The translations under genes were made by a program, and so were the position numbers. A stretch of DNA of 43,887 bases from Candidatus Gastranaerophilales bacterium (GTDB taxonomy: Bacteria; Cyanobacteriota; Vampirovibrionia; Gastranaerophilales; Gastranaerophilaceae), in assembly GCA_944325165.1 (NCBI GenBank), contig CALUZF010000003.1:1-43887 (forward strand), read 5' to 3'. Within the stretch, counting starts at the first letter, position 1. Each line of letters begins with the position of its first letter. Below, one piece after another: positions 12,238 through 43,019 of the stretch. The notes under the pieces are model-generated. The model worked only from the letters and a program-made list of their open reading frames with translations. It made no database searches and was not told the DNA's origin.

Positions 12238-13746
12238 ATGAATATTTCAGCTATCAACAATTTATCAAGCATTAATACATCATTAAAACTAAAAAATTTA
12301 CAAAAAACATCAAATTCATTAACTCAAAGCTCATATTCAATTGCAAAAAATACTCTACAAGAAGCAATTGGAAGAAGTATGGTGCTTCCTTTTAAAGGCA
12401 ATGGACAAATTACTCAAGACGGCTTTTTGTATACACAAGAAAATATGCTAGGCTCCTTAAATGATAGAATTACATACAACAAGAAAACAGGCGAATTTAT
12501 CTTTGAAAAAACGCTTCCAAATGGAATTGTAAAAGAAAGTGTAAAATTTAACCCACAAAATGGTACAACTATTTCATATAAACTAAATGATAATGATACC
12601 ACTACTCAAACAATAAAGACTCCAAAAGACACAAGAACTTTAATAAAAGATGAACAAGGACGTAGAATTTATTTTGAAATAGAAAATCCGAAAGGTCAAA
12701 GAAAAACAGTTGAAACAGACTACGATAGAAATCGTGAAGTTACACAATTAAGTGCGCCAAACATTCCTACAAAAACAACCGTAAAAGATTTATCAACAGG
12801 AAAATATGTAGTTAGTGGGCCTTTAGTAGAAGATAGAATAGAAGTAGAAGATGGCATATTTGAAACAAAAAATATAGTAACAGGTGCGCTATATAAACGT
12901 GAAATATACACAAATAAAGGAAGAACAATTCAAATCACTGATTTTTCTAGAGAAACAGGAATAAAAACAAAAGAAACAATAATTGATAAAGGCGAGACAG
13001 ATATTACATATTTTGATAAAAATGGCGTAAGAAACAAAAATGTCTATACCAACAAAAAAGGTGTGAAAACATATACAATCTATGCTGAAGATGGAATTTA
13101 TGAAACATCAAAAGTAGAAAAAACATTTGATAAAAAAGGTAAACTTCTAAGAAAAGTTACATATACTCCAAATACAGATTTAATAGAAAATATTGTTGAA
13201 GTAAATAACGCAAATAAATCTACTACAACATATTATTTTGAATCATACCCAAATGTTTGCAAATATAGCGAAACTAAAGTAAATGATGTTTTAGTTAAAT
13301 CAATTAATTACTATGAAGATGGCAAAAAACCTAAAAAAATTACAAAATACGACACAAATGGCTCATATATTGAAGAATTGTATGATAAAAAAGGACATTT
13401 TCCTAAAGCTAAAACACTATATTATGATACAAATCATGAATTATATAAACGTGAAGAATTTGACACTCGAACAGGTAAAATATTTGAATCATGGGAAAAA
13501 CACCCAAATATTGACAATTTGAGCATACTAAAAATGTTTGATTATAATGGAATTCTTGAAAAGAAAGATATCATACAAAACGAAAGAATATTGTCCGAAA
13601 GAACATATTATTATGACGATGGTATTACGCCAAGAAAAATAATTAAATATAATCCAGATAGATCCTACAAAGAGCTTGAATATTCAAGAGCATTTAAATT
13701 AACGTCTGAAAATGAATACACAGCTTATGGCGAATTAAAATCATAG
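12238..13746 (+). CDS. Large Tyr/Asp/Gly repeat protein with tagged N-terminus, unknown function
   Basis: A 502-aa protein without signal peptide or membrane segment. The N-terminus MNISAINNLSSINTS and an LPFKGNG at about residue 51 resemble the N-terminal tag seen on several other proteins here (see findings). From about residue 60 to the end it is built of short beta-hairpin units such as TYFDKNGVRNKNVYTNKKGV and YYEDGKKPKKITKYDTNGSY, in the style of RHS/YD or YwqK-like (MORN-related) repeats. Such repeats form beta sheets used for binding. No catalytic domain is visible. AAGGA precedes the ATG by 6 nt. It has its own promoter with a palindrome. Confidence 0.75.
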   Translation: MNISAINNLSSINTSLKLKNLQKTSNSLTQSSYSIAKNTLQEAIGRSMVLPFKGNGQITQDGFLYTQENMLGSLNDRITYNKKTGEFIFEKTLPNGIVKESVKFNPQNGTTISYKLNDNDTTTQTIKTPKDTRTLIKDEQGRRIYFEIENPKGQRKTVETDYDRNREVTQLSAPNIPTKTTVKDLSTGKYVVSGPLVEDRIEVEDGIFETKNIVTGALYKREIYTNKGRTIQITDFSRETGIKTKETIIDKGETDITYFDKNGVRNKNVYTNKKGVKTYTIYAEDGIYETSKVEKTFDKKGKLLRKVTYTPNTDLIENIVEVNNANKSTTTYYFESYPNVCKYSETKVNDVLVKSINYYEDGKKPKKITKYDTNGSYIEELYDKKGHFPKAKTLYYDTNHELYKREEFDTRTGKIFESWEKHPNIDNLSILKMFDYNGILEKKDIIQNERILSERTYYYDDGITPRKIIKYNPDRSYKELEYSRAFKLTSENEYTAYGELKS

Positions 13747-26883: not shown

Positions 26884-27204
26884 ATGAATATCTCGCCAAT
26901 TAGAAATAATGTTTATTTTAAAAGAAATTATAATAGTTCGTTTGGCAATAACTATAATAGAAGCGATAATGAGCTTGAAAATATTGCAAAAATAATAAGT
27001 CTTAAACAAAAAGTTAATGAAATTAAAGATTATAGACAAACTAGACTAATCGAATTAACCAAACAACAAATCAGAATAAGAGGGCAAATGCAATCTGAAA
27101 TAGATAGAATTGAAAGAGAAAAAGAAGAATTAATAAGTAAAACCTCAAGACAAATATTCAATTTAAACAGTCAAATAACATTTCATCTTGGCGAAAATAA
27201 ATAG
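26884..27204 (+). CDS. Small coiled-coil protein with MNISPI N-terminal tag
   Basis: A 106-aa protein. The first 25 residues, MNISPIRNNVYFKRNYNSSF and on, are Asn-rich with FK and SFG elements that resemble the other tagged proteins here; the rest (about 33-100) is a highly charged coiled coil (Arg, Glu, Lys, Gln with Ile/Leu at heptad positions). No signal peptide or membrane segment. AAAGGA precedes the ATG. The next gene, 9 bp downstream, has the same design, so the two form a small operon ending at a terminator. Function unknown. Confidence 0.7.
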   Translation: MNISPIRNNVYFKRNYNSSFGNNYNRSDNELENIAKIISLKQKVNEIKDYRQTRLIELTKQQIRIRGQMQSEIDRIEREKEELISKTSRQIFNLNSQITFHLGENK

Positions 27205-27213
27205 GAAAATTTT

Positions 27214-27528
27214 ATGAATATTCAGCCTATTAGCTCAACAATTTCAAAAAATATTCACTTTGGTGCCACACAAAATATAACCGAAACCCAAAGACATGAG
27301 GCAAATAAAGAAATTGACGATATAAGAAAACAAATTAGCGAACTAGATAAGTCATTAACAAGCAATATATCAAAAATCGATTCTGCTGAAAAAGAAATTA
27401 AAGAAGATGGAGAAAGGCAAATCTCTGTACTTGAAAAAGAAAAAGACGATTTAAGAAAACAAACAAACAAAGATAAAACAACTCTCCAAAAAAGAATTGA
27501 TGACTTGCAAAATCAATATGATGTTTAA
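27214..27528 (+). CDS. Small coiled-coil protein with MNIQPI N-terminal tag
   Basis: A 104-aa protein. The start MNIQPISSTISKNIHFGATQ shows the same M-x-I-x-P-I opening and a later H-F-G-A as in its neighbour and other proteins in the window. Residues 25-104 form a continuous charged coiled coil (EIDDIRKQISELDKSLTSNI and on). AGGAAAATTTT precedes the ATG. The identical architecture of the two genes suggests either duplication or a heteromeric pair, though the coiled coils are not obviously homologous. Function unknown. Confidence 0.72.
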   Translation: MNIQPISSTISKNIHFGATQNITETQRHEANKEIDDIRKQISELDKSLTSNISKIDSAEKEIKEDGERQISVLEKEKDDLRKQTNKDKTTLQKRIDDLQNQYDV

Positions 27529-29190: not shown

Positions 29191-30531
29191 CTATTTTTTA
29201 ATATATTCACTATAAAATTTAAAAGCTTGAAATGTTTTTGAAAAATGATTTTTGCCAAGTCCGGCCTTCATTTTAAGCGAATTTAAAAAATCCTTTTTAT
29301 TATTTATTTGCTCCCAAACACTTGGAAGATATACAGCCTGATAAATACCATCTTTTATGATAATTCCATCTTTAAAAGGTGTGATATTATCAAGCAAATC
29401 ATCTTCATTACTAAATTCTATTTTAATCGGGTGAGATAAAATAGAAACCTTAATTTCAATTTTATCAATTTCATCTTCAGATAAAGGCAAAAACCTAGGG
29501 TCTTTATATGCGGCATTATAAGCATTTTTAACTAAATTATTAATCAAAGGCTCATAAGCAACAACAGAACCTATACAGCCTCTTAAAAAACCGTTTATTT
29601 CAAGAGTAACAAAACAAGCACCCACTTCATCAAACACGCAATTATATTCTTTAGGAAAATATTTTCCTTTTTGTTCAATACTTTTTTTACATAAATCTAA
29701 AATAAAATTGCTAAAATATTCTTTAATATACTTATTTTTACTTTCTTCATAAAGTTTCCAAGCACCATAGCCCACAACCCTTGTTTTATCATTTGTTGCT
29801 TTTGATGAATTAAACAAACCTATTCTAATTAATGAAAAATCATTATCTTTTGAAAACTTTTTAAGAGCGTATATTCCTTCATGTCCACAAGCTCTAGGGC
29901 GTTCAAATTTTATAAATTCATTTGACTCGATTATTTGCGCTGTTTTTTCATCTATTTTTTCAGCCTCAGAATCACTATAAAAATGACTTAAATCAGAAGA
30001 TATTACAAAAGAATTCCTTTTATCTTCCCAATATTCGCTTATTATTTGATTAATTATTTCATAAGAATTATAAGAGGTTAATATAGGAATTATTTTAAAA
30101 TCATTGTCTTTATTTAGATACTTTAATATAGGTAATTGGACTTCGATTGAATGCTCTTTTTCAAATGCTTCATTGATATAATTTAAATTTAGCTTATTTT
30201 TTATATCATTTGTAATAGCTAAATTTTGATATATAGTGCCAAATGGGGTTAAAAAGCCGTCATAATCCGATATTCCAATTGTTGTTAAAGGGTATGTATG
30301 CGAGGGGGCTATAATGAAAAAATTTTTTGTATCTTTGTTGATATTTTTAATTGCTTCATAAGCAAGCACTCCAGAGTACCTATAGCCGGCATGAGGAGCA
30401 ATTACTGCTCTTGCAGGAGCAATGATTTTTTCTTTTAGTGTTTTATCATAATCTAAAAAAAGATTTTCAAGCTCAGTTTTATCGCTTGAATAAAACACTC
30501 CTGCTGTTAATTGTTGTTTAATTTTTTCCAT
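29191..30531 (-). CDS. AmmeMemoRadiSam proteins B and A fused (MEMO1-AMMECR1)
   Basis: A 446-aa two-domain protein. Residues 1-260 are a MEMO-like domain related to class III extradiol dioxygenases, with VIAPHAGYRYSGVLAYEAI, the metal-site-like HSIEVQLPILKYL and SSDLSHF. Residues about 285-446 are an AMMECR1 domain with its signature LRGCIG (in FLRGCIGSVVAYEPLI) and YKDPRFLPLSEDE. Together with the divergent radical SAM gene 54 bp away this is the complete AmmeMemoRadiSam set, which is widespread in bacteria and archaea but, to my knowledge, without an agreed reaction. The fusion of A and B is a known arrangement. Confidence 0.93.
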   Translation of the reverse strand: MEKIKQQLTAGVFYSSDKTELENLFLDYDKTLKEKIIAPARAVIAPHAGYRYSGVLAYEAIKNINKDTKNFFIIAPSHTYPLTTIGISDYDGFLTPFGTIYQNLAITNDIKNKLNLNYINEAFEKEHSIEVQLPILKYLNKDNDFKIIPILTSYNSYEIINQIISEYWEDKRNSFVISSDLSHFYSDSEAEKIDEKTAQIIESNEFIKFERPRACGHEGIYALKKFSKDNDFSLIRIGLFNSSKATNDKTRVVGYGAWKLYEESKNKYIKEYFSNFILDLCKKSIEQKGKYFPKEYNCVFDEVGACFVTLEINGFLRGCIGSVVAYEPLINNLVKNAYNAAYKDPRFLPLSEDEIDKIEIKVSILSHPIKIEFSNEDDLLDNITPFKDGIIIKDGIYQAVYLPSVWEQINNKKDFLNSLKMKAGLGKNHFSKTFQAFKFYSEYIKK

Positions 30532-30585
30532 AGAAATTTTATTTGCATATTCTAATTATTTATTAAATTAATTATAATATTTTTT

Positions 30586-31593
30586 ATGAAATATCAAAGA
30601 AAAATTGAAAATAACATCCAAATGTGCGAAATTTGTCCAAGAAAATGTATTCTAAAAGAAGGACAAAATGGCTATTGCAACGCAAGAAAAAACATAAATT
30701 CAAATATAGAATTAACAACTTTTGGCTATTGTTCATCTTTAGCATTAGATCCCATTGAAAAGAAACCGCTCTACCATTTTTACCCGTCATCAAAAGTGTT
30801 ATCATTTGGAACAATAGGCTGTAATATGGGGTGTTTATTTTGTCAAAATTGGCATATTACCAAAATCAAAATAGATGATTATAAAGGTTATATACACAAA
30901 CTAGCACCTGTCGATATTGTTAATATTGCCCTTCAAAATAAATACAAAAGTATTGCTTTTACATATAATGACCCTATTGCATTTTTTGAATATGCCTTAG
31001 AAACTGCAAAATTAGCGAAAGACAAAGGAATAAAAACAATTGCAGTATCAGCAGGTTACATAAATAAAGAACCGCTAGAGGAATTATTTTCATATATTGA
31101 TGCTGCAAATATTGATTTAAAAGCATTTAGCGATGATTTTTATAAAAAATATTGTAATGCTTCATTGGATATTGTGTTAGATAATTTAAAATATATAAAA
31201 CATAACACCAACACATGGCTTGAAATTACAACTCTTTTAATTGAAGGGTTAAATGATTCTGATGATATGTTAAAAAAAGAATGCGATTGGATATTGAATA
31301 ATCTTGGAGATAATACAGTTATTCATTTTAGTGCTTTCAGTCCGCAATATAAGTTTTTGAATTATCCAAAAACTTCAGCTAAAACAATTACAAAAGCTTG
31401 TGAAATAGCAAAAAAACAGGGCTTAAAATACATCTATAGCGGTAATATTTTGAATAATAAAACATCAAATACATACTGTCCAAAATGCAATAACATTTTA
31501 ATTGAAAGATTATGTTATGATGTTTTAAATTTTAATATAATTGATTCAAAATGCAAATTTTGCGGTGAAAAAATTGATGGCGTATTTAGTTAA
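30586..31593 (+). CDS. amrS: AmmeMemoRadiSam system radical SAM enzyme
   Basis: A 335-aa radical SAM protein of the pyruvate formate-lyase-activating type. An N-terminal Cys cluster, CEICPRKCILKEGQNGYC, precedes the [4Fe-4S]-binding CNMGCLFC (CX3CX2C) at about residues 81-88. The SAM fold continues through IAFTYNDPIAFFEYALE and AVSAGYINKEPLEEL. The C-terminus carries a rubredoxin-like metal site, YCPKC and CKFCG. This layout is specific for the AmmeMemoRadiSam enzyme. It is divergently transcribed from the fused MEMO-AMMECR1 gene; the shared 54-bp spacer must hold both promoters. The substrate is unknown. Confidence 0.92.
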   Translation: MKYQRKIENNIQMCEICPRKCILKEGQNGYCNARKNINSNIELTTFGYCSSLALDPIEKKPLYHFYPSSKVLSFGTIGCNMGCLFCQNWHITKIKIDDYKGYIHKLAPVDIVNIALQNKYKSIAFTYNDPIAFFEYALETAKLAKDKGIKTIAVSAGYINKEPLEELFSYIDAANIDLKAFSDDFYKKYCNASLDIVLDNLKYIKHNTNTWLEITTLLIEGLNDSDDMLKKECDWILNNLGDNTVIHFSAFSPQYKFLNYPKTSAKTITKACEIAKKQGLKYIYSGNILNNKTSNTYCPKCNNILIERLCYDVLNFNIIDSKCKFCGEKIDGVFS

Positions 31594-31921: not shown

Positions 31922-32130
31922 TTGCTCAAAAGTATTTATTTAGGAATGAAATTAGAGAAAAATAAAAAACCTCTAACTCGTGAAAAAATTCTTTCTTTAA
32001 TAAAAGGAGAATTATCGAGTGCAAAAATTTTATATTGATTAAAATTAATAAAGAAAATTTCAAAACTGCATTTACTCGACAATCATTTGATACTATGAAG
32101 ACATCTTTAAATTTTGCAAAAAGAATAACT
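31922..32130 (+). pseudogene. Remnants of one or two small unknown genes
   Basis: A 38-codon frame (31922-32038) reads LLKSIYLGMKLEKNKKPLTR and on to SSAKILY and a TGA. That TGA overlaps a TTG (TTGA) that opens a second frame, IKINKENFKTAFTRQSFDTM and on, which runs past 32130 antisense into the end of the kinase-like gene. The 4-bp overlap resembles coupled genes, and both stretches have protein-like composition, but neither is a recognised family and the second lacks its own end. I read them as remnants of a lost gene pair. The remaining sequence from 31594 holds nothing else I can name. Confidence 0.35.
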
Positions 32131-33941
32131 TATTGTTTAACCGAAACAAGAAAATCATGCATGCTAAAGGGGTTAATTGGTGTAGTATTTGCAGAATTTA
32201 TTGGTTTTGTAGCTGTTTGGATTTGCTGTGTATTTTGTCCTATTTTATTTGCTTGCGATTGCTGTATATTTCCTAATGCGTTATTATTTTCTATATTTTG
32301 ATTTTGTTTATTTTTTCTATGTTTAAAATAAGCAAATACAGAACCAATAACAGCACCAATACCAATAATTGCAGCTATAATTTTTCCTCCGTTTTTAGAA
32401 CCTTGTTTTACTATCATAGCAGGTTCTGTTTTTAGAGTATCTGTTACAGTCTCCATGGTGTCTTGGGTTGCTTGCGCTGTTTTTACAAATAATTTTTCTA
32501 CAAGATTGAATTCAGGCTCAAGTTGAGCTCTTTTTGCACCTTCAGGTATTCTATAAATACCAGCTTTTAATTTTTCAAAAAATGACAGCGAATCATTATA
32601 ATATTGCTTTAGTTCACCTGTATCTTTATCTTTAAAACCTTGTATCATAGAAACTAGAGTTTCAAACTGAGTTTGAACCGCACTTTTTTGCTCCTCTGCC
32701 ACCCATCTTATTTGCATTTTTGCCAATTCTGTTTTTAAAACATTTTCTTTAATTGTTTCTTGCGATAATAAATCGGTCAGCATTTTTTCATAGCTTGTTG
32801 CATTTTTAATTCTTTGAGAAATTGTTTCTCTATCCAGTTGGCAAGCATTTGATACTTCATCAATATTTAATCCTTCAAAGAAACTTACCATAATTTTATG
32901 ATGCTCAGACCCTTTAGCTTTAAGATAATTTATCAACACTTGGCTTGCAATATCACTATCTTTAGCTTTTGCAGTATCAAATAAATGGTAAAAGAGGCTT
33001 CTGTATTCAAAATTAGCTACATTTGATAGAGAACTAAAATATGGATTAGCGTTTCTTGAAATACAAGTTGTATCAATATCAGAAAAGCCTAAATACGGCT
33101 TTGTATTTTTAAGCAATTCTTCAAGGTTTAATCTTCTAATATCACCCTCTTTTAATGCACCAAAATCAGGGTAGAATGAATCATAATCCATTGAAACGCC
33201 TAATGATTTCAGCATTTCAAGAGTTATTTTATCCTGTACAGATACACTAAATCCTCCAAAGTCAATTAATTCAGCTTTATCTCCATTAAAAAATATATTT
33301 TCAAGTTGAGCATCGTATTGCATAAAACCGCTTTTATCGAGCTGAGTTAATTTTTTTAAAACATCTCGGGTTTGATTTGGATTTAATATTCTCCCCTCTT
33401 GTGCATTTAAAACTTTACCTTTTGCAAGGTTTGTTATTATGTAGTGTTTGCCATCTTTTTCAATTATATCAATCAATTCTTGAGCATCTTCAACACCTGA
33501 CTCTTTTACTTTTTTTAGTGCAAAAGCTTCTTTCTCGTACGTAGAATCATTGCCGTAGTTCATAGCATCAGGTCTAAAAAACCTTACACCATAGCTTTCG
33601 CCATCAGTTGAAGGAATCTTGTAGCAAATTGAGTTCGTTCCAACTCCCATTATTTTAAAGTCTGATGAATCTGCTTTTTTTAAAAAGTTTTTCATCTCAT
33701 CTTTGCCCATTTGTCGATTGGTTGATTGCAAATGTTTATCTGTAGTTTGTTTTAAATCTTCATAAATTGATGCTAAAAAAGTAATAAAACTTTCAAAATC
33801 AGGTACAGTGTCTTTATTGCCTTTAAAACTTACCGTATCAACATTATCTTGAAAGATAGGTTTTGTTATACCAAAGCTTCTAATATTCTTTGAAATATTA
33901 TAAGAACTACCTATGTTAAGTTTTATAGTATTAATTCTCAC
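32130..33941 (-). CDS. Divergent protein-kinase-fold membrane protein
   Basis: A 603-aa protein with a kinase-like domain at about 95-300: a Gly-rich loop GVGTNSICYKI (99-109), YGVR with Arg120 where kinases have the ATP-binding Lys, a possible helix-C Glu136 or Glu138, a catalytic-loop equivalent MQYDAQLENIFF (Asp210 and Asn215 kept; the His, Arg and Lys of HRDxK replaced), and a metal-binding DFG at 228-230. Helical sequence follows, then one membrane segment (about 518-539) and a Gln/Asn-rich tail of 64 residues. The N-terminus (MRINTIKLNI, then IRSFG and VSFKG at 37-41) carries the recurrent tag. The start codon is GTG. Activity is uncertain because of the Lys to Arg change. It is divergent from the HAD/radical-SAM operon. 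Confidence 0.7.
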   Translation of the reverse strand: MRINTIKLNIGSSYNISKNIRSFGITKPIFQDNVDTVSFKGNKDTVPDFESFITFLASIYEDLKQTTDKHLQSTNRQMGKDEMKNFLKKADSSDFKIMGVGTNSICYKIPSTDGESYGVRFFRPDAMNYGNDSTYEKEAFALKKVKESGVEDAQELIDIIEKDGKHYIITNLAKGKVLNAQEGRILNPNQTRDVLKKLTQLDKSGFMQYDAQLENIFFNGDKAELIDFGGFSVSVQDKITLEMLKSLGVSMDYDSFYPDFGALKEGDIRRLNLEELLKNTKPYLGFSDIDTTCISRNANPYFSSLSNVANFEYRSLFYHLFDTAKAKDSDIASQVLINYLKAKGSEHHKIMVSFFEGLNIDEVSNACQLDRETISQRIKNATSYEKMLTDLLSQETIKENVLKTELAKMQIRWVAEEQKSAVQTQFETLVSMIQGFKDKDTGELKQYYNDSLSFFEKLKAGIYRIPEGAKRAQLEPEFNLVEKLFVKTAQATQDTMETVTDTLKTEPAMIVKQGSKNGGKIIAAIIGIGAVIGSVFAYFKHRKNKQNQNIENNNALGNIQQSQANKIGQNTQQIQTATKPINSANTTPINPFSMHDFLVSVKQ

Positions 33942-34140
33942 TTATTATTTTTTCCTCTTAGTATAACAACACTACGTCTGCATATATATAAAACTACAAA
34001 AAAATATTTTTTAATAGAAGAATGTAAATAATTATTAATTTTATATATAAATACTATTTAAAAATAACTTTAAAAAGGGTTTAATGAAGTAATATTAAAC
34101 AATTAGTTTAACAAATTAATATAGAAATAATTGGTGAAAC

Positions 34141-35487
34141 TTGCGCATTACTAACATTAAACAACACTATAGGCAAATCAATTTTAGTGCAGGCAACTTT
34201 TCTCTTTTTTCTGATTTTGACGGTACTTACATGCCTTTTGACCATAAAGATATTTGTACTTATGATGGTTACAAAAATAATAATGAAATCAAAAGACTGT
34301 TTAACTGCTGTTATGTACCATTTCAAAATTTTATAAATAAATTTGGTGACAATTTTAATTTCGTAATTACAACGGGAAGAAATCGACCTGAATTTAACTA
34401 CTTTCTAAGTAAATTAAAAGCGCAAGGAGCAGATTTACCAAAACCTGATACTCTAATTACTTGTGACGGCAAAGATATTTTCTATAGACAGGGCGGTGTT
34501 TATCCAAAAGAGACACTGGATCATAAGAAAAGGGATGAATTATCTAGGAAACTGAATTGGAATCCTGCTCAAATAGTACCTAGAGTGCAAGAGCTTATAT
34601 CAAAAACACCAACCAAAGACGGGAAACACATTAATATAATCACAGTCCCAATTAACAAAAGTTCTATTGATTATGGCAATATTTCCCTTCAAAATATATT
34701 AGATAATAGTGCTAATATCAGAAATAATTTTGCTTCATTCAATGAAGGTTACGATTTTAATCCCTATATCGTTTTTTCAGATAATGCAGATGTTGAAACA
34801 ATAAAAAAACGACTTGAAGAATTTTTAAGACATAGCCAAATAAACGCTAAAGTCAGCTATTGTGAACAAGATTGGGATGTTCAATATGGTGTACCTTACC
34901 AATCATTATCAGTAAAACCATATGCAACAGAAGGTTTTTGGAAAGATAAAAAGATCAACAAGCTGATCGATACCCACAAAAAAGTTGAGGAAATTTATAA
35001 AAATAAAACAAACGATCTTATTATTGTTGCAGGCGATGCAAGAAACGATGAAGATATGCTAAATATATTTAATTATGTTGATATACTTGGCTTTGAAATA
35101 CCGACCAGAGATAAATACAAAGAATTTTTAGAAGATTCAAAAAATAGAGAACTTTTAAGGCAGTTGCCTATTATTAGTGTTGTGGTTGGCTCAAAACAAG
35201 ACTTGGAACAAATAAGACGAAATCAACAGTTATTAGATAAATACGGAATAAGCAAAACGGTGTTTATTGATTATAACAATGGCGACATATTGCTTGACGG
35301 CGTAAAACAAGCAATAAATATATATTCAAAACAAAATGAACAATTTAAAAATGCACTTCCCGCAGAGCTTTTAAATGAATTAAAGCCGCTAAATATACCT
35401 TTATCAAATAGATATAATAAGCTTATAGAGGAGATAAAAGTTTTATTTAGAAAATTAGATAAAATCAAGGAGTCCTTATATGCTTGA
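34141..35487 (+). CDS. HAD-superfamily phosphatase (Cof/sucrose-phosphatase type) with tagged N-terminus
   Basis: A 448-aa protein. HAD motif I is DFDGT (25-29, catalytic Asp25 and Asp27), motif II TTGR (77-80), and motif IV GDARND (298-303). The cap between motifs places it among the HAD-IIB hydrolases that act on sugar phosphates. A C-terminal extension of about 130 residues is not part of the known domain. The N-terminus MRITNIKQHYRQINFSAG precedes motif I directly and matches the tag family. The start is TTG: it is the first possible codon after an in-frame stop at 34135 and it alone preserves the tag. The ribosome site is weak (GGTG). Its last 8 bp overlap the radical SAM gene, so the two are coupled. 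Confidence 0.8.
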   Translation: MRITNIKQHYRQINFSAGNFSLFSDFDGTYMPFDHKDICTYDGYKNNNEIKRLFNCCYVPFQNFINKFGDNFNFVITTGRNRPEFNYFLSKLKAQGADLPKPDTLITCDGKDIFYRQGGVYPKETLDHKKRDELSRKLNWNPAQIVPRVQELISKTPTKDGKHINIITVPINKSSIDYGNISLQNILDNSANIRNNFASFNEGYDFNPYIVFSDNADVETIKKRLEEFLRHSQINAKVSYCEQDWDVQYGVPYQSLSVKPYATEGFWKDKKINKLIDTHKKVEEIYKNKTNDLIIVAGDARNDEDMLNIFNYVDILGFEIPTRDKYKEFLEDSKNRELLRQLPIISVVVGSKQDLEQIRRNQQLLDKYGISKTVFIDYNNGDILLDGVKQAINIYSKQNEQFKNALPAELLNELKPLNIPLSNRYNKLIEEIKVLFRKLDKIKESLYA

Positions 35488-36751
35488 ATTACCTTTTCAG
35501 ATGGAATTTGTTGTTAATTTAACTCATAGATGCAATATGACTTGCAATATGTGTACTCAATACGGTGCAACATTTAAAAATAATACATTAAATGAAATGA
35601 CCTTTGAGGAGTGGGATAACTTCTTTAAAAGTTTAAAAATAGTTAGACCGAGGCCACTTGTTACTTTAATGGGCGGTGAACCATTGTTGCATAAAGATTT
35701 TGACAAGATTTTAATGTCAGCAGTTGAAAACAAACTTAAAGTACATATTGTAACAAACGGATTTCTTTTAAAAGAACATCTTGATACAATTGCAAAATCG
35801 AAAGCAAATATATCCATAAGCATTGATGGGCTTGGTGAAACTCATGATAGGATTAGAAATACAAAAGGAAGCTTTGAAAAATCTGTAGAATGTTTAAAAC
35901 TAATACAAAAAATCAACAAACCAAAAAGGCAAATAAGGACTTGTATAAATTTTGTAATGTTGCCCGAAAATATTGATGAAATATTGGAATTTGCACAAAC
36001 TATGTGGCAATATGAACCTGCTTTCATTGGTTTTCAACATTTGCAGTTTTCGTCTGATAAATTAGACAAAGAAAACAATAAAGAGTGGATTAAATGTTTT
36101 AATCAAAAATATACAACAAAACTAAAGCCGAAAGTTGAATATAAGTTCGATGAAGATTATATTCAGAAGTTATATTCAATAATAGAGCAGTTGAGAAAAA
36201 AATATGCTCCTACCAAGGTTTATGATTTTCCTCATTTAACATTTGAAGAAATGAAAAAATATTATCTAGAAGAAGATTTATTCTTAATCAGAAAAAATAG
36301 GGTTTGCACAACTCCTTGGATGGCGCCATCTATTACACCCGATGGCAAGGTTTCAAATTGTATCTGTAACGAAATTGGCGATTTAAGAAAAGAGGATTTT
36401 TGGACAATTTTTGATAACCATAAGGCAAATCTAATAAGACAAAGACTTGTTGAACATGGTAAATTCCCCGTATGTTCAAGGTGCTGTTGCTTTTATAAAA
36501 GTAATTTTTTGCTTGCACCAAATAAAGTAATTAAATTAAATGATGGGCAAAAATTACTTTTGCCACAGGAATTAAACTTTATAACAGCAGCAAAAGATGG
36601 TGTATTTGTTTATAATTCTAGTTTTGTCTTTGAAAATAGTGAACAAATGGATTACACGCCTGTTTTGCCCCATACTATTCACAATAAAAAACAGCAAAAA
36701 AGAATAGAAAAAGATAATGTTATAGTTGGCACATATGATCAAATGTTGTAA
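35480..36751 (+). CDS. Radical SAM enzyme with SPASM-like C-terminal domain
   Basis: A 423-aa enzyme. The [4Fe-4S] site C-x3-C-x2-C is Cys18-Cys22-Cys25 (CNMTCNMC). GGEP (65-68) and ISIDGLGETHDRIR complete the radical SAM barrel. The C-terminal part has Cys276 (CTTPW), Cys294 and Cys296 (CIC) around PDGKVSNC, and Cys332, 335, 336 and 337 (CSRCCC), the arrangement of SPASM/twitch auxiliary clusters found in peptide-modifying enzymes and some carbohydrate or cofactor enzymes. AAGGAG precedes the ATG. Its gene overlaps the HAD gene and lies 29 bp before a small Gly-rich protein gene, which could encode its substrate. Substrate unknown. Confidence 0.88.
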   Translation: MLELPFQMEFVVNLTHRCNMTCNMCTQYGATFKNNTLNEMTFEEWDNFFKSLKIVRPRPLVTLMGGEPLLHKDFDKILMSAVENKLKVHIVTNGFLLKEHLDTIAKSKANISISIDGLGETHDRIRNTKGSFEKSVECLKLIQKINKPKRQIRTCINFVMLPENIDEILEFAQTMWQYEPAFIGFQHLQFSSDKLDKENNKEWIKCFNQKYTTKLKPKVEYKFDEDYIQKLYSIIEQLRKKYAPTKVYDFPHLTFEEMKKYYLEEDLFLIRKNRVCTTPWMAPSITPDGKVSNCICNEIGDLRKEDFWTIFDNHKANLIRQRLVEHGKFPVCSRCCCFYKSNFLLAPNKVIKLNDGQKLLLPQELNFITAAKDGVFVYNSSFVFENSEQMDYTPVLPHTIHNKKQQKRIEKDNVIVGTYDQML

Positions 36752-36780
36752 AATACAGTTAGATAAAAGGAGAAACGACA

Positions 36781-37365
36781 ATGGCAATCAATACTCACGA
36801 CAATAGTTTATTGTTTTCAAAAAAACATTCAAAACAAAAACTTTCAAGTTCAAAAAGTACAAAAGCTAAAGCAAGTGATTTACAAAGTTTTACAGGTACA
36901 AGTATTTATGAAACAGGAAAGAAAAATAAAATTGATTCTGTTAAGTTAAAGAATTCATTGCTATCAAATATTTCTTTTGCAGGGACAACAAACGCAATTG
37001 CATTTGGCTCAGGTGGTGGTTATGGTTCGTATGGTGGGGGTTATAGCTCCACTCCATCATCTTCTCAATCTGCGCAAGGAAGTCAACAAACTACAGGAGT
37101 GCAAAAATCTCAGGCAACACAAAGAGCAAGTGTGGTAAATGATGATTTTAATATCGAAGGATTATACAATAGCGATAAGGTGAAAAAATTGACAACTGAA
37201 AAAATGAACTTAATTAAACAATATAAAGACTTGCAGGCGACAATAAGAGAATTAGATGCCAAAAAGAAAGAAGCTGTTGAAATGCTTGCTGAAATTAGAG
37301 GCAAAGTTCATCAGATAAACATGGATATTTTAACTGCTGAAGAAGAAGAACTTTTTAGGCAATAA
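36781..37365 (+). CDS. Gly/Ser/Tyr-rich protein with C-terminal coiled coil, possible radical-SAM partner
   Basis: A 194-aa protein between the radical SAM gene and the GH13-like gene. The first 60 residues are Ser/Lys-rich. Then come ISFAG (64-68) and IAFGSGGGYGSYGGGY (73-88), a Ser/Gln-rich linker to about 115, and a charged coiled coil from about 135 to 190. The FAG and FG elements are like those of the tagged proteins, and the Gly-Tyr-Ser stretch resembles the linker of the EF-hand protein at 24.5-26.0 kb. No signal peptide, leader cleavage site or Cys is present. AAGGAGAAACGACA precedes ATG. It is either a structural protein or a substrate of the upstream enzyme. Confidence 0.7.
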   Translation: MAINTHDNSLLFSKKHSKQKLSSSKSTKAKASDLQSFTGTSIYETGKKNKIDSVKLKNSLLSNISFAGTTNAIAFGSGGGYGSYGGGYSSTPSSSQSAQGSQQTTGVQKSQATQRASVVNDDFNIEGLYNSDKVKKLTTEKMNLIKQYKDLQATIRELDAKKKEAVEMLAEIRGKVHQINMDILTAEEEELFRQ

Positions 37366-37367
37366 AT

Positions 37368-39272
37368 ATGCAGCAATTTAAAAACTATACCGAATTTATG
37401 TTAGTTTCTCCAAAGGATATTTTAGGTATAGATTTAAATGTTTTTAAAAAAATAATGATTGATAGGCTTGGAAAAGATAAGTTTTTTCAAGCCTATCAAT
37501 GTAATAAATTAATTAAAAGTCCTGTAAGTTCTTGTAATAATTCAGATTGGTTTAAAAAATCGAAAATTATAGGGGTTAACCCTAGAATTGCAGGCAGCTT
37601 TATTAATATTGTAAAATATGCGCTAACTTTTCCTGAAAATGCAATACATATTATGCCGTTTTTTGAATCAGGGCATGAAGGTAGTTTATATGTACAAAAT
37701 AGCTGGCGTATTTCAGATGAATTTTTTGATAATGAACTTAAAAAAGATGGATTTGATACAGTTGAAAAACAGCTTAAGGTTACAATAAATCTTTTACATG
37801 CATTAGGAAAAGCGGTTGGGTTTGATGTATTAACCCATGTTGACAATTTTTCTGAAATTGTATTTTTAAACCCTAAATATTTTGAGTGGGCTAAATTGAA
37901 TAAAGATAAAACTTCTCAATTATTCCCCCCTGAAATTGATTATAACAAGATATATTTAGAAGTTGAAAAAAAGATTATAGAATTTGTTAAAAATAAAAAT
38001 TCTAAGATTGATTTTGATATAGATAATTTATTTAATAATACCAATGAATATTTACGCCACAAAATTATATTTGGCACAAATGAAAAACAGTGGGAACCTG
38101 TAAGATTAGAGCTAATAAAATACATACGCTCTTTTGGCTATGAAACACTTCCAGTAGTTGAACATGCACCAATTCGCCCGATTGTATTTGAAAAAATTAT
38201 AAGTAAAAATAATACGAATTGGGCTCAATTTAAAGTCGAAAATAAAGCACCCGATGCCGTTATTTTAGGATGTGTTACACCATATAGGTGGTACAAGATT
38301 GACGATATGGGATATCCTCAAACTTCAAAATATGAAACAGAAGTTTGGAAATATTTTATGGATAAATATAAACAAATTCAAAAAGAATTTAATTTTGATT
38401 TTGCAAGAGCCGATATGGCACACAATCAAATTTCTCATTCATCAAAAACTATAGGGAAAAATAAGAAAAAAGAATTTTGGAAAGAATTAAAAAAAGCTAT
38501 TCAAAAAGATACCCCTTATTTTGCAACATTAGCAGAGGCTTTTTATAACACTTATTACATTGATGGTTATTCTGATATGATAAATAAAGATTTTGATGTT
38601 GTTTTGGGAAATTTAAATTACAGACTTTTGAATGAAAACTACATAAATCACATTAAAGATTTTCTTGGGATTTATTCTAAACATTTTTCTTTTGCACCTT
38701 GTATATGTGCTTTTACAAATGATTCAGATAAAAAAGAACATAATATACACTATCAATCGCCCCTTGGAAATGAAATAAGAATGTTTTGTGCTTTTTTTCT
38801 AGAGCTTCCAAGCTATATGGGAATGGGATATGAATTAAGAGATTCATTACCCAAAAAGCAAGAAGAATATTCTTTTAATTACATAAAAAGTCAAAAGAAA
38901 CCATATAAGTGGGGTAATAATGAAGAATTTTTATCGGCTGTTTTTGAAATGAGAGAGGTGTTTTCAAAAATTAAAGATGAAATTAAAAATCCAAGAATAG
39001 AGCTATGTGATACGGATAATATAAGTTTAGCTTGGCTATATTTAGATGAAAACAATAATGCTAAGTATCTTTTCTGTTTTAATTTAGATACAGAAAAGGA
39101 AAAGGTTTGCATAAACTTAAATAAAGAATTAATAACAAGCAAAGTATTGAAGGGATTTTATTCAAATATTTATGAAGATATTGTTGAGCTTAATTTAAAA
39201 GTAACAAACTCAAACAAAATTAATCTCAACAATTTACCCATAGGAGCTTGTTTAATACTTTCTTTTGTATAG
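37368..39272 (+). CDS. GH13-like (alpha-amylase superfamily) glycoside hydrolase or transglycosidase
   Basis: A 634-aa protein with a TIM-barrel pattern. The four GH13 regions can be traced: region I GFDVLTHVDN (151-160; Asp153), region II FDFARADMAH (343-352; candidate nucleophile Asp349), region III FATLAEAF (385-392; candidate acid/base Glu390) and region IV CAFTNDSD (447-454; Asp452 or 454). Start-region blocks such as ENAIHIMPFFESGHEG resemble strand 2 of the barrel. Overall similarity to well-known amylases is low, so the substrate is open; starch-like glucans or alpha-glucosides are possible. No signal peptide, so it acts in the cytoplasm. It is the last gene of the operon, 2 bp after the Gly-rich gene. 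Confidence 0.7.
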   Translation: MQQFKNYTEFMLVSPKDILGIDLNVFKKIMIDRLGKDKFFQAYQCNKLIKSPVSSCNNSDWFKKSKIIGVNPRIAGSFINIVKYALTFPENAIHIMPFFESGHEGSLYVQNSWRISDEFFDNELKKDGFDTVEKQLKVTINLLHALGKAVGFDVLTHVDNFSEIVFLNPKYFEWAKLNKDKTSQLFPPEIDYNKIYLEVEKKIIEFVKNKNSKIDFDIDNLFNNTNEYLRHKIIFGTNEKQWEPVRLELIKYIRSFGYETLPVVEHAPIRPIVFEKIISKNNTNWAQFKVENKAPDAVILGCVTPYRWYKIDDMGYPQTSKYETEVWKYFMDKYKQIQKEFNFDFARADMAHNQISHSSKTIGKNKKKEFWKELKKAIQKDTPYFATLAEAFYNTYYIDGYSDMINKDFDVVLGNLNYRLLNENYINHIKDFLGIYSKHFSFAPCICAFTNDSDKKEHNIHYQSPLGNEIRMFCAFFLELPSYMGMGYELRDSLPKKQEEYSFNYIKSQKKPYKWGNNEEFLSAVFEMREVFSKIKDEIKNPRIELCDTDNISLAWLYLDENNNAKYLFCFNLDTEKEKVCINLNKELITSKVLKGFYSNIYEDIVELNLKVTNSNKINLNNLPIGACLILSFV

Positions 39273-39322: not shown

Positions 39323-39360
39323 ATTATGCTCCTAAAAATTCAGGAGTATAATCTCTTTTT
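39323..39360 (+). terminator. Terminator of the HAD-radical SAM-GH13 operon
   Basis: ATTATGCTCCT / AGGAGTATAAT pairs over 11 bp with one G-U, an 8-nt loop, then CTCTTTTT. It lies 50 bp after the GH13-like stop codon. Confidence 0.8.
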
Positions 39361-39708: not shown

Positions 39709-40653
39709 GTGTCTAATACAATTACAGCAACAGTTATTGGAAATTATAAATATGTAAAATATCAAGAAGAACCTTATTATTGTTCTCAAAACATTAATAA
39801 ACTAATTCCAAAATTTAAAATTACACCGAAAGTTGCATTATATTTTATTACATGCATAAAAAAATTTGTTTCTCAATACAATGGGCAGCAAGGGGGATAT
39901 AAAATCGAACAATTAAAAAATTTTTCAATCTTATTACCTGTAAATAAAAATGAAGAACCCGACTTTCACTATATGGAACACTATATAAGCGAACTCGAAG
40001 AGGAACGAATAAGCGAACTCGAAGCTTACTTGAAAATAAATGGTTTTGATAATTATGAATTAACCCAGGAAGAATTATCTGCCATCGAAAATTTAAAAAA
40101 CAAGAAAATTCAATTTGATGAATTTAATATAACTGGACAAGATGGCATTTTTAATGTAAAAAATACACATAGTATTTTACAAGAATGGATAATTCCAAAT
40201 AGTGGTACTATTCCTTATGTGACAGCTGGAGTTGGAAATAATTCAATAACGACAAATATTAATGCACCACAAGAATGGATTGAAGAAGGCAACTCAATAA
40301 TGATTGGAGGTAAAACTCTTGTTATTACATATCAAGAAAATGACTATGTTTCAAATGATAGTCATAATTTAGCATTATATTTAAAAGATGAAAGATATAA
40401 AACTGAGAATATACATTTATTTTTAGTGTCTGCTCTATATAAAAGCTTAAAACCAAAATATGAATGGGGCAACTCCATCTCAAAAACAAAAATTCAAAAA
40501 GATAAGATTAAATTGCCAATTGATGAAAATAAAAATATTGACTACAAATTTATGGAAACATATATTAGTGGGATTAAAAAACTGTCCATAAGAAATGTGG
40601 TTGATTGGAAAGATAAAATCATCAAAATTACTAAAGATATATGTAATAAGTAA
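39709..40653 (+). CDS. Restriction-modification specificity subunit (HsdS-like), N-terminally truncated
   Basis: A 314-aa protein with the central conserved helix region of S subunits (LLPVNKNEEPDFHYMEHYI, then SELEEERISELEAYLKINGF) and a second target-recognition domain (residues about 150-280) ending in IKLPIDENKNIDYKFMETYI, a repeat of the first boundary. Only the last part of the first recognition domain is present (residues 1-85). The GTG start is the best codon available; the frame is open back to 39679, where a stop ends it, so about 100 residues of domain one are missing. No hsdM or hsdR is beside it. It is therefore an orphan, probably degraded, although it could pair with subunits elsewhere. 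Confidence 0.78.
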   Translation: MSNTITATVIGNYKYVKYQEEPYYCSQNINKLIPKFKITPKVALYFITCIKKFVSQYNGQQGGYKIEQLKNFSILLPVNKNEEPDFHYMEHYISELEEERISELEAYLKINGFDNYELTQEELSAIENLKNKKIQFDEFNITGQDGIFNVKNTHSILQEWIIPNSGTIPYVTAGVGNNSITTNINAPQEWIEEGNSIMIGGKTLVITYQENDYVSNDSHNLALYLKDERYKTENIHLFLVSALYKSLKPKYEWGNSISKTKIQKDKIKLPIDENKNIDYKFMETYISGIKKLSIRNVVDWKDKIIKITKDICNK

Positions 40654-40691
40654 TTTTGTTATTTTTTAATTCCTTGCACAACTGGACTATA

Positions 40692-40717
40692 CCGAAATAA
40701 TCAAACTATCCGTACAC
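40692..40717 (+). repeat. Intergenic repeat, copy A
   Basis: CCGAAATAATCAAACTAT followed by CCGTACAC. It differs at only a few positions from copy B (40858-40883) and from the inverted copy at 31704-31729. It lies in the gene-free gap 40654-41183. A partial inverted match, AGTTTGATTTTT, is at 40794-40805. Confidence 0.75.
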
Positions 40718-40857
40718 CTTAAAAACGGTCTAAACGCTAGCTTTTTAAGAAAAAATCAATAATCACTACAGTCCGAAAAAAGTCCATTTCGGCAGTTTGA
40801 TTTTTGCGGGTTATCGTAATTTTCCGACCTGAAAACGCCCTCACAGAGTGACCTAAG

Positions 40858-40883
40858 CCAAAATAATCAAAGTATCCGTACAA
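40858..40883 (+). repeat. Intergenic repeat, copy B
   Basis: CCAAAATAATCAAAGTAT followed by CCGTACAA, in the same orientation as copy A, 166 bp further on. Confidence 0.75.
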
Positions 40884-40889
40884 ATCAAT

Positions 40890-40923
40890 CTGGTCGTTAA
40901 ATTACACTGGTCGTTAAATTACA
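40890..40923 (+). repeat. Perfect tandem duplication of 17 bp
   Basis: CTGGTCGTTAAATTACA occurs twice in direct succession (40890-40906, 40907-40923), just after repeat copy B. Confidence 0.85.
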
Positions 40924-40951
40924 TTAAAAGTGAAAAAACATATATAAATAC

Positions 40952-40999
40952 GAAAAGCCTGAGACCGTACACATACCGTACACAAATCTCAGGCTTTTC
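40952..40999 (-). terminator. Hairpin downstream of the tRNA fragment
   Basis: A perfect 13-bp stem GAAAAGCCTGAGA / TCTCAGGCTTTTC has a 22-nt loop made of two near-copies of CCGTACACA 11 bp apart. On the minus strand it follows the tRNA-fMet 3' end by 7 nt and ends CTTTTC, so it is a plausible original terminator of that tRNA gene. The TACACA sequences in its loop match those on the other side of the tRNA fragment. Confidence 0.65.
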
Positions 41000-41006
41000 C
41001 TTTAAA

Positions 41007-41051
41007 TGGTTGCGGGAGCTGGATTTGAACCAACGACCTTCGGGTTATGAG
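41007..41051 (-). other. Putative attachment site: 3' fragment of an initiator tRNA (fMet) gene
   Basis: Read on the minus strand, 45 nt begin at the anticodon loop CTCATAA, continue with the CCC half of the anticodon stem, the variable loop, the T arm GTTGGTTCAAATCCAGC, the acceptor strand and CCA. The CCC stem and the A at position 72 (TCCCGCA then ACCA) are initiator features. The 5' half of the tRNA is absent: upstream bases do not supply GGG or a D arm. Such 3' fragments, starting at the anticodon, are the classical footprint of tyrosine-recombinase integration. The element should lie on the 5' side of the fragment, that is to the right (41052 onwards), and the intact tRNA gene at its far end, outside the window. 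Confidence 0.82.
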
Positions 41052-41140
41052 TGTGGTTTAGTAGTTTTATTAAATTTTATATAGTTTAATAAAATCAATG
41101 GTTTTAAGGTATTTTTAATAAAAATAAAACTCTATAAAAC

Positions 41141-41178
41141 TACACAAAATTACACAACACTACACAAATATTACACAA
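41141..41178 (+). repeat. Four helically phased TACACAA repeats beside the att site
   Basis: TACACAA occurs at 41141, 41151, 41161 and 41172, that is, with 10, 10 and 11 bp spacing, on one face of the helix. Two TACACA copies 11 bp apart lie on the other side of the tRNA fragment (40968 and 40979). Arm-type binding sites of tyrosine integrases or sites for excisionase have this layout. A 10-bp inverted repeat TTTTATTAAA / TTTAATAAAA (41065-41094) lies between. Confidence 0.65.
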
Positions 41179-41183
41179 AAAAA

Positions 41184-41465
41184 TTAAGCCAAACTTTTTT
41201 GCAAATCTTCAATATACTCTTCACCCCTTAATGTCAAATAATCCTCTGGTATAGTTGTAAAAAAGTTCTGTCCTATACCTCTTTTGGCTACAACGTGCGT
41301 ATAGCCTAGTGTATTCAATTCATTTATAACCTCAATCATACCGCTTATATCTTTTCTTATAAGCTCTTTAACTCCTTGATTTACTTCTAGCAAGGTTTTA
41401 CTATTCTGTTTTGAATTATACAGTAAATTTAGCAATTCTTTTGTATATTCTTGACGTTTTCCCAT
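41184..41465 (-). CDS. Small winged-helix-like protein of the island
   Basis: A 93-aa basic protein, mostly helical, with a C-terminal pattern (ELNTLGYTHVVAKRGIGQNF, then YLTLRGEEYIEDL) that resembles the wing and last helix of small winged-helix proteins seen in prophages and conjugative elements. No family can be named with confidence. It starts 4 bp after the XRE regulator gene and is presumably co-transcribed with it. It lies immediately inside the putative attachment site. Confidence 0.6.
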   Translation of the reverse strand: MGKRQEYTKELLNLLYNSKQNSKTLLEVNQGVKELIRKDISGMIEVINELNTLGYTHVVAKRGIGQNFFTTIPEDYLTLRGEEYIEDLQKSLA

Positions 41466-41469
41466 AATC

Positions 41470-41811
41470 CTATCCCTTAATTTTTTTATTATATTTCTTT
41501 ATTGATTCTATGAAATTTACAAATAACTCTAGCTCGGCATTATTAGAAGAATACACTTCTTTAATAATCTTATCCCTATTTGTATTTTTGTTTTCTTCAA
41601 CTTGAAACCCAAACTCTGACAGCGGAACATTTAAAACATCTATCAATTTAAAAAATGTTTCAAGGCTTGGCATAAAAACACCTCTTTCTAATTTTCCATA
41701 GTGTTTTTCTGCAATTCCTATCTTCTCCGATAGTTCTTCTTGGGTTAATTTCGCCTTTTTTCTATATTCTTTAAATTTTTTGCCTAAAAATTCCTTGTCG
41801 TAAAATATCAT
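41470..41811 (-). CDS. XRE-family transcriptional regulator
   Basis: A 113-aa protein. Residues about 10-68 form a Cro/C1-type helix-turn-helix: FKEYRKKAKLTQEELSEKIG, then KHYGKLERGVFMPSLETFFK and LIDVLNVPLSEF. A C-terminal helical tail (VYSSNNAELELFVNFIESIK) probably dimerises. GAGGT precedes the ATG. It is divergent from the HsdR_N-type nuclease gene across 152 bp; this spacer must hold both promoters and likely its operators. An imperfect palindrome AAGGTATAT / ATATTCCTT lies at about 41892-41911. The decayed copy at 27.6-27.9 kb belongs to the same subfamily. Confidence 0.88.
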   Translation of the reverse strand: MIFYDKEFLGKKFKEYRKKAKLTQEELSEKIGIAEKHYGKLERGVFMPSLETFFKLIDVLNVPLSEFGFQVEENKNTNRDKIIKEVYSSNNAELELFVNFIESIKKYNKKIKG

Positions 41812-41963
41812 AGGGTTGTACCTCGCTATTTTTCTTAAAATAGAATATTTATGACTACTTTTTAACTCTCTTTCTATTCCTTAACTTAAATAAGGTATAT
41901 TTATATTCCTTTTTGTGTTAATATCCTATTGAGGTAGTTAAAAAATAATGAGGTATTTGCTAT

Positions 41964-43019
41964 ATGGAATTTATTGAAAAGATTAACCAGCTAAAGGAAC
42001 GCTGTTCGGCTATGAAAGACAGCTTGCAAACAGAGGAAGCAACAAAAAACGCATTAATTATGCCTTTTATTAATGCACTCGGGTATGATGTTTTTAATCC
42101 TATTGAAGTTGTACCTGAATATATTGCAGATGTAGGAGTTAAAAAAGGTGAAAAGGTTGACTATGCAATATTAAAAGATAATAAACCGATAATACTCATT
42201 GAATGCAAGAAAGTTGATAATAAATCTTTAGATATTAAAAAACACGCAACTCAACTTATAAGATATTTTAGTGTTACTGACGCAAAGTTTATAATTTTAT
42301 CAAATGGAATTGTATATAAATTCTTTTCTGATATTGAATCTGCTGGCAAATTAGATAATGAGCCGTTTTTTACATTTAACTTATTAGATTTCAAAGAAAA
42401 TCAAATAGAAACTCTATCTGAATTTTGCAAAGAAAATTTTGATATAGAAAAAGCATTTTCAAATGCAGGTGATTTAAAGTATATTAAGCAATTTGAAGAA
42501 GTTATTGAAAATGAATACAGACAACCAAGCGATGATTTTATAAGGTATTTAATAAATAAATCTGGAGTTTGTGAAGGTCGCATTACCGATAGAATTATTG
42601 AAAAACATAAAAATACTACCATAGAAGCATTTAACCTCTTTATGTCAAAAGTAATGAAAACATCCCTCGATTTTAATTTAAGCTCCAAACAAGAAACCAA
42701 AGAAACAAAAAACGAAATTATAACAACTCTTGAAGAATTAGAAGGCTACGCAATAGTAAAAAGTCTTTTAAATGGTGTTGTTGATACAAAAAGAATAACA
42801 TATAGGGATAATGCTAGCTATTTCAATGTTTTATTAGATGACAATATAAGAAAGGCTATATGTAGATTGTATTTTAACCGTTCACAAAAATATATAGCAT
42901 TTGTAAAAGATAAAAAAGAAGAAAAAATTGCTATTAATTCTATTGATGATATATTTAATTTTTCCGAACAGATAAAAGAAAAAATTAATGAAATATTGGC
43001 TGTACAATCAAGTAATTAA
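41964..43019 (+). CDS. HsdR N-terminal-type nuclease domain protein
   Basis: A 351-aa protein whose first 170 residues match the N-terminal nuclease domain of type I restriction R subunits: EATKNALIMPFINALGYDVF, then Asp66 (VDYAILKDNKP) and Glu80-x-Lys82 (IILIECKK), a PD-(D/E)xK site with the residues in place. The helicase/translocase motor of HsdR is absent; residues about 180-351 form a separate alpha/beta domain of unknown function. Such stand-alone proteins are common on prophages and integrative elements, where defence is suspected. GAGGT precedes ATG. Two small zinc-ribbon membrane protein genes follow at 11 bp intervals, so the three form an operon divergent from an XRE regulator. Confidence 0.82.
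   Translation: MEFIEKINQLKERCSAMKDSLQTEEATKNALIMPFINALGYDVFNPIEVVPEYIADVGVKKGEKVDYAILKDNKPIILIECKKVDNKSLDIKKHATQLIRYFSVTDAKFIILSNGIVYKFFSDIESAGKLDNEPFFTFNLLDFKENQIETLSEFCKENFDIEKAFSNAGDLKYIKQFEEVIENEYRQPSDDFIRYLINKSGVCEGRITDRIIEKHKNTTIEAFNLFMSKVMKTSLDFNLSSKQETKETKNEIITTLEELEGYAIVKSLLNGVVDTKRITYRDNASYFNVLLDDNIRKAICRLYFNRSQKYIAFVKDKKEEKIAINSIDDIFNFSEQIKEKINEILAVQSSN

What the first reader, a model, noticed from the sequence alone, without database searches (positions are those of the whole stretch)
32130..39272. Kinase-like / HAD / radical SAM-SPASM / Gly-rich / GH13 cluster
Four plus-strand genes are packed as an operon (8-bp overlap, 29-bp and 2-bp gaps, shared terminator) and face a kinase-like membrane gene. 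The mix of a sugar-phosphate-type phosphatase, a SPASM radical SAM enzyme, a Gly-Tyr-Ser protein without Cys and a GH13-like enzyme matches no pathway I know. The enzyme may modify the small protein, or the set may build or trim a glycoconjugate with the small protein as scaffold. The kinase-like gene and two operon members carry tag-like sequences.
Basis: partly seen in the sequence, partly recalled or inferred. Interest (0 to 1): 0.75.

Follow-up and report, generated by a model that had tools for sequence, protein, structure and literature searches.

The report
Co-inherited tagged-protein and sugar-enzyme cassette
Gut bacteria of the non-photosynthetic cyanobacterial group Gastranaerophilales carry an optional, undescribed set of five genes (kinase, phosphatase, radical-SAM enzyme, tagged coiled-coil protein, amylase-fold enzyme) that are inherited together and probably build or modify a sugar polymer, while only three of the five proteins bear a short front-end tag.

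Summary
The gene layout is confirmed, and the five genes are a real system. The same order (KIN facing HAD-rSAM-CC-GH13) recurs in other Gastranaerophilaceae with different flanks. All five genes occur in 20 of 28 loci. The families' distance matrices correlate at r = 0.93-0.98, and all genes are under purifying selection.

GH13 is a new branch of the alpha-amylase fold, nearest to Thermotoga maltosyltransferase and GlgE, with its catalytic residues invariant. In one genome it is fused to a glycogen-synthase (GT5) domain. KIN is a C-terminally anchored protein-kinase-like protein. HAD is a complete phosphatase. rSAM is a new SPASM/twitch-type enzyme.

The "Gly-rich protein" is misnamed. Equivalents are 180-500 aa proteins, and the Gly stretch is confined to one clade. 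What they share is the N-terminal tag region.

Tags occur on KIN, HAD and CC (68 of 73 by pattern) and never on rSAM, GH13 or the optional methyltransferase and pseudo-rSAM (0 of 68). Tags also occur in genomes without the cassette.

Best reading (moderate confidence): cytosolic GH13 and rSAM make or tailor an alpha-glucan-type sugar on or for the tagged coiled-coil protein, and KIN and HAD control phosphate. Chemistry, substrate and tag function are unproven.

The parts
32130..33941 (-). KIN: tagged, protein-kinase-like protein with one hydrophobic segment near the C-terminus; faces the operon
   Evidence: D210, N215, D227 invariant in 8 orthologues
33816..33941 (-). N-terminal tag region of KIN (MRINTIK...DTVSFKGN, residues 1-42)
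   Evidence: direct reading; tag pattern in 21 of 22 KIN
33942..34140 (.). 199-bp divergent intergenic region between KIN and HAD
34141..35487 (+). HAD-IIB-type phosphatase (DFDGT, TTGR, K274, GDxxND), tagged
34141..34197 (+). N-terminal tag of HAD (MRITNIKQHYRQINFSAGN)
   Evidence: direct reading
35480..36751 (+). radical SAM enzyme with one SPASM/twitch-type auxiliary cluster (C18/C22/C25; C276, C294, C332, C335), untagged
36781..37365 (+). CC ('Gly-rich'): tagged protein of 194 aa with a Ser/Thr/Gln-rich middle and a probably helical C-terminus
36781..36987 (+). two-part tag region of CC (DLQSFTG ... NSLLSNISFAGT), the only part clearly shared with the long CC proteins
37006..37044 (+). Gly-Tyr-Ser stretch, present only in the window's clade
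37368..39272 (+). GH13-fold enzyme, untagged; D349, E390, D452/D454 invariant
39323..39352 (+). terminator-like hairpin of the operon

Best explanation
An accessory five-gene cassette of gut Gastranaerophilales, inherited as one unit. SHOWN: conserved order and co-inheritance; an intact catalytic set in HAD and GH13, the radical SAM and auxiliary-cluster cysteines in rSAM, and the invariant kinase Asp/Asn/Asp in KIN; tags on KIN, HAD and CC only. INFERRED: the untagged enzymes work in the cytoplasm. GH13, a retaining transglycosylase like maltosyltransferase or GlgE, moves alpha-linked glucosyl or maltosyl units. The rSAM (plus methyltransferase and pseudo-rSAM where present) alters sugar carbons of that product. 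The tagged coiled-coil protein is the carrier or scaffold of the glucan or the partner of GH13, and the tagged, membrane-anchored kinase and the tagged phosphatase add and remove phosphate on the sugar or on CC. The tag sorts these three proteins to a shared place used by other tagged proteins of the lineage.
For: Full set in 20 of 28 loci (window plus the 27 loci), with different flanking genes. Distance correlations 0.93-0.98. dN/dS 0.04-0.25 for all five genes. GH13 fold with 1gju and GlgE at Z about 20 and catalytic residues invariant. GH13 fused to a GT5 glycogen-synthase domain, with a second GT5 gene next. The rSAM auxiliary domain matches BtrN, and its core matches cytosylglucuronate decarboxylase, both sugar-acting enzymes (my knowledge). 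Short rSAM relatives lie beside a DegT-type aminotransferase. The HAD matches sucrose-phosphate phosphatase. Tag split 68/73 versus 0/68. A CC protein, or a CC-like one by eye, lies by GH13 or in the same cassette in every locus except the GT5 fusion.
Against: No substrate or product is known. G036 carries the cassette but has no glycogen synthase above the Pfam cut-off, so glycogen made by GlgA cannot be the general substrate. KIN is closer to protein kinases than to sugar kinases. KIN with HAD forms a pair elsewhere without GH13 or rSAM, so they may not share the sugar role. The best PDB match of the rSAM core is peptide-modifying SkfB.
Confidence: 0.35

Rival explanations
1. Peptide-modification (RiPP-like) system: the rSAM, with methyltransferase and pseudo-rSAM in some genomes, modifies residues in the conserved N-terminal region of CC; GH13, HAD and KIN are tailoring or accessory enzymes.
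For: CC has a conserved N-terminal region followed by bodies of very different length (182-498 aa). The rSAM profile hits SkfB best in the PDB. A methyltransferase and a pseudo-rSAM that lacks CxxxCxxC but keeps the SPASM cysteines are often added.
Against: CC persists beside GH13 without rSAM in L050, L055 and L062. The rSAM is far below the cut-off of every NCBIfam model shown, peptide maturases among them. No PqqD/RRE domain was seen. The bodies are long and helix-like, unlike a core peptide. Tags exist in genomes without this cassette.
Confidence: 0.2
2. Tagged KIN, HAD and CC are substrates of the lineage's flagellar/type III export apparatus and act outside the cell; rSAM and GH13 are cytosolic helpers. 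The tag is an export signal.
For: The tag is N-terminal, not a Sec signal, and split cleanly by gene. FlhB-type export genes occur in 12 of 12 genomes, two copies in most. A single-scaffold Melainabacterium genome lacks filament and hook-filament junction genes while still having flagellar genes (PMC3787301). A tagged ankyrin-repeat protein sits inside one cassette.
Against: Tagged proteins also include an M41 peptidase-AAA protein, a GT5 synthase and an alpha-amylase-type enzyme, which need not be exported. The tail anchor of KIN argues for the cell's own membrane. No secretion data exist and no link of tag genes to export genes was tested.
Confidence: 0.15
3. The genes are two modules of separate function (KIN-HAD and rSAM-CC-GH13) that only travel together.
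For: KIN and HAD also occur as a pair elsewhere (L158, L160, L162, L163, L168). CC-GH13 occurs without the others. In L058-L061 the two modules are separate blocks.
Against: Same five genes in 20 of 28 loci with varied flanks; distance correlations 0.93-0.98.
Confidence: 0.2

Closest known systems
Thermotoga maritima maltosyltransferase (1gju) and GlgE (GH13_3)
   Same: GH13 fold over most of the model (Z 20.8 and 20.2), catalytic Asp/Glu/Asp in place
   Different: about 12-18% identity, no Pfam match; set with rSAM, coiled-coil, kinase and HAD genes that those systems lack as far as I know
GlgE pathway (TreS, Pep2 maltokinase, GlgE, GlgB)
   Same: a kinase and a GlgE-like GH13 side by side
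   Different: KIN is protein-kinase-like, not Pep2-like in any search made here; no TreS or GlgB in the cassette; rSAM and CC added
rSAM/SPASM peptide-maturase (RiPP) cassettes
   Same: rSAM with auxiliary cluster next to a Cys-free tagged protein gene
   Different: long helix-rich CC proteins, no RRE/PqqD hit, scores far below NCBIfam cut-offs
BtrN / cytosylglucuronate decarboxylase (rSAM enzymes acting on sugars)
   Same: profile matches to the auxiliary domain (BtrN) and to the core (decarboxylase)
   Different: longer C-terminal extension that resembles only the pseudo-rSAM of the same cassette
Prokaryotic viperins (pVip)
   Same: rSAM core matches PADLOC pVip (E 2e-22); some pVips have kinase partners
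   Different: 68.6 bits against the NCBIfam cut-off of 180; extra auxiliary-cluster domain

Membership tests
GH13 (alpha-amylase family) | (beta/alpha)8 GH13 fold | tested here: met
   Foldseek 1gju E 6.7e-16; VIA-align Z 20.8, rmsd 6.0, 447 aligned; GlgE 5cgm Z 20.2, rmsd 3.8, 358 aligned
GH13 (alpha-amylase family) | catalytic Asp (region II), Glu (III), Asp (IV) | tested here: met
   RAD349, AE390AF, ND452xD454 invariant in 10 sequences; region II aligns with 1gju
GlgE pathway | GlgE, maltokinase Pep2, TreS and GlgB together | tested here: not met
   no TreS, GlgB or Pep2 match among the cassette proteins
HAD-IIB phosphatases | DxDGT, T, K and GDxxND motifs | tested here: met
   DFDGT, TTGR, K274, GDxxND in the window; motif residues invariant across 8 sequences apart from the G of DFDGT; S6PP over gathering
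Protein kinase superfamily | curated family score in at least one orthologue; catalytic Asp, Asn and DFG | tested here: met
   Pkinase 34.2 bits over 31.7 in L029; D210, N215, D227 invariant. The window protein itself is below the score and has Arg where several orthologues have Lys in the probable beta-3 strand.
Radical SAM | CxxxCxxC and core domain | tested here: met
   Radical_SAM 100.6 bits; C18, C22, C25 invariant
RiPP rSAM-maturase system | maturase model above curated cut-off | tested here: not met
   the 25 best NCBIfam hits score 52-83 bits against cut-offs of 170 or more
RiPP rSAM-maturase system | short precursor with leader and core peptide | tested here: inconclusive
   conserved N-terminal region but bodies of 180-500 aa
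Viperin (pVip) | curated viperin score, NF038283 | tested here: not met
   68.6 bits against 180; PADLOC pVip 77.7 bits, no cut-off given

The most novel reading that the evidence does not exclude
A lineage-wide N-terminal sorting tag (M-K-I-x-x-I ... S-F-K-G) directs kinase, phosphatase and coiled-coil scaffold to a shared site, where a glucan built by a new GH13 branch and altered by a radical SAM enzyme is attached: a bacterial glucan-protein made by a kind of system not yet described.
Probability: 0.15. Interest if true: 0.85.

Novelty: categorically new. Interest (0 to 1): 0.6.

Why it matters
No described system that I could find pairs these five genes; this rests on the curated libraries and open-access papers searched here. 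If confirmed it would give a first handle on a tag used across a common but barely studied gut lineage, a new branch of the best-known starch enzyme family, and a new setting for radical SAM chemistry. The clean tag split makes the question testable with five proteins.

Tried and rejected
Rejected: tag as a dedicated recognition site of this rSAM (tags occur in genomes without the cassette). Rejected: viperin. No PADLOC system explains the set. Phage or plasmid cargo: no match in phage or plasmid records or viral contigs. Tried without result: literature on the lineage with glycogen, radical SAM, secretion. A simple tag regex on unbiased stretches did not exceed shuffles; only the combined test of start plus motif did. 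The kinase model is poor (mean pLDDT 52), so its fold matches are weak support. The empty-site test in two same-genus genomes shows synteny up to 31594 and no cassette; in G261 the next pieces are rearranged, so no clean insertion point was found.
Full report
WHAT IS THERE. The genome is a 1.76-Mb, 195-contig assembly; its relatives are named Candidatus Gastranaerophilales.

CONSERVATION. In 117 genomes of the family, the GH13 gene is found in 10 and the rSAM at E <= 1e-60 in 11; eight genomes hold both. The other three rSAM hits are shorter proteins in another context, in two of them beside a DegT-type aminotransferase gene. Of the two GH13 genomes without the rSAM, G019 keeps a HAD remnant with two stops just upstream of CC. 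A scan of one genome per species gave 27 loci, all from Gastranaerophilales or from records titled only 'Cyanobacteria bacterium', 'uncultured bacterium' or 'Bacterium'. With the window, 20 of 28 loci hold all five genes (nine of the 27 loci are genomes already met in the family search). In most loci the order is the window's; in L058-L061 rSAM and GH13 precede KIN|HAD-CC. In eight loci a methyltransferase and a pseudo-rSAM follow GH13. The flanking genes differ widely between loci. Distance matrices of the families correlate at 0.93-0.98. dN/dS is 0.04-0.25 for every gene compared. In a sample of 292 genomes of the phylum, full-length GH13 appears only in this family.

GH13. Pfam and NCBIfam are silent, but the profile finds 1gju at E 6e-5. 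The model (mean pLDDT 66.7) matches 1gju first in Foldseek and GlgE at Z about 20. D349, E390 and D452/D454, the expected catalytic residues, are invariant, and region II aligns with 1gju. In L056 the same domain is fused to a GT5 glycogen-synthase-type domain (Glyco_transf_5, E 7e-30) and another GT5 gene follows. A distant 770-aa relative occurs in many family members.

rSAM. C18, C22 and C25 and four further cysteines (C276, C294, C332, C335) are invariant in 11 sequences, so one auxiliary cluster is expected. It stays below all curated cut-offs shown. The pseudo-rSAM starts with the same LPF motif and keeps the auxiliary cysteines but lacks CxxxCxxC.

KIN AND HAD. KIN orthologues reach Pkinase, keep the catalytic Asp, Asn and DFG Asp, and most have one hydrophobic segment 26-82 residues from the C-terminus. 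HAD has its catalytic motifs. KIN and HAD also form a pair elsewhere, both tagged, without GH13 or rSAM (L158, L160, L162, L163, L168). In L037 a 567-bp deletion removes the start of HAD.

CC. The Gly stretch is limited to the window's clade. A profile of the long CC proteins made without that clade finds the short ones through the tag region (15-25 bits), with only a faint match in the C-terminal helix. The bodies are therefore equivalent by position, not proven homologous. CC, or a CC-like protein in L036/L052, lies by GH13 or in the same cassette everywhere except in the GT5 fusion locus L056.

THE TAG. By one pattern the tag is on 21/22 KIN, 17/21 HAD and 30/30 CC, and on 0/24 rSAM, 0/28 GH13, 0/8 methyltransferase and 0/8 pseudo-rSAM. 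Three of the four HAD misses are tagged by eye, and the fourth has lost its N-terminus. Related sequences count separately here, so the counts are not independent events. Outside the cassette, start and motif co-occur at the N-terminus only, also in genomes without the cassette. Tagged proteins include a GT5 enzyme, an alpha-amylase-type enzyme and an AAA-M41 peptidase. FlhB-type export genes are present in all 12 genomes tested.

READING. Sugar chemistry is favoured by the GH13 fold, the GT5 fusion, the HAD type and the sugar-acting relatives of the rSAM. It is weakened by G036, which has the cassette and no GlgA above cut-off, and by the protein-kinase character of KIN. I put the whole mechanism at 0.35 and the reality of the cassette near 0.95.

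NOVELTY. I rate it 'categorically new' as a system because no known kind that I tested fits (membership tests), while every enzyme in it belongs to a known superfamily. The rating would fall to 'new variant of a known kind' if GH13 proves to be a GlgE-type maltosyltransferase in a familiar pathway.

A NOTE ON CONDUCT. While thinking about the export idea I began to write a known injected effector's letters from memory.

Noticed in passing
window 12238-13746, 26884-27204, 27214-27528: Three more proteins of unknown function with the same kind of N-terminal tag (for example MNISAINN...LPFKGN).
   Followed up: partly
window 29191-31593: AmmeMemoRadiSam genes (fused Memo-AMMECR1 and the matching radical SAM enzyme), matching their NCBIfam models.
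   Followed up: no
window 39709-43019: Pieces of a type I restriction system (HsdS specificity domain, HsdR N-terminus) right after the cassette.
   Followed up: no
window 40662-40906; L182 7523-7766 and 18794-18948: A stretch of about 245 bp of which a same-genus genome holds two copies (one partial), one next to the sequence that precedes the cassette in the window; possible mobile element or RNA.
   Followed up: no
L056 9986-13630: GH13 domain fused to a GT5 glycogen-synthase-type domain, followed by a second GT5 gene and preceded by a DegT-like aminotransferase.
   Followed up: yes
L042 3446-4765, L043 12080-13378, L053 5277-6563: A tagged protein with a weak PHP phosphoesterase match lies near the cassette in three genomes.
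   Followed up: partly
L169 7583-9913, L179 5870-8197: A 775-aa distant relative of the GH13 gene, common in the family, close to an FlhB gene in L179 and to a conserved 364-373 aa protein in both.
   Followed up: no
L037 5976-6845: A tagged ankyrin-repeat protein between KIN and a HAD gene that has lost its start by a 567-bp deletion.
   Followed up: partly
L034 10324-12852 (own genome, contig 18), L138 5593-8637 (own genome, contig 15): Tagged GT5 glycogen-synthase-type protein and tagged AAA plus M41 peptidase protein.
   Followed up: partly
L158, L160, L162, L163, L168: KIN-HAD pairs, both tagged, outside the cassette.
   Followed up: partly
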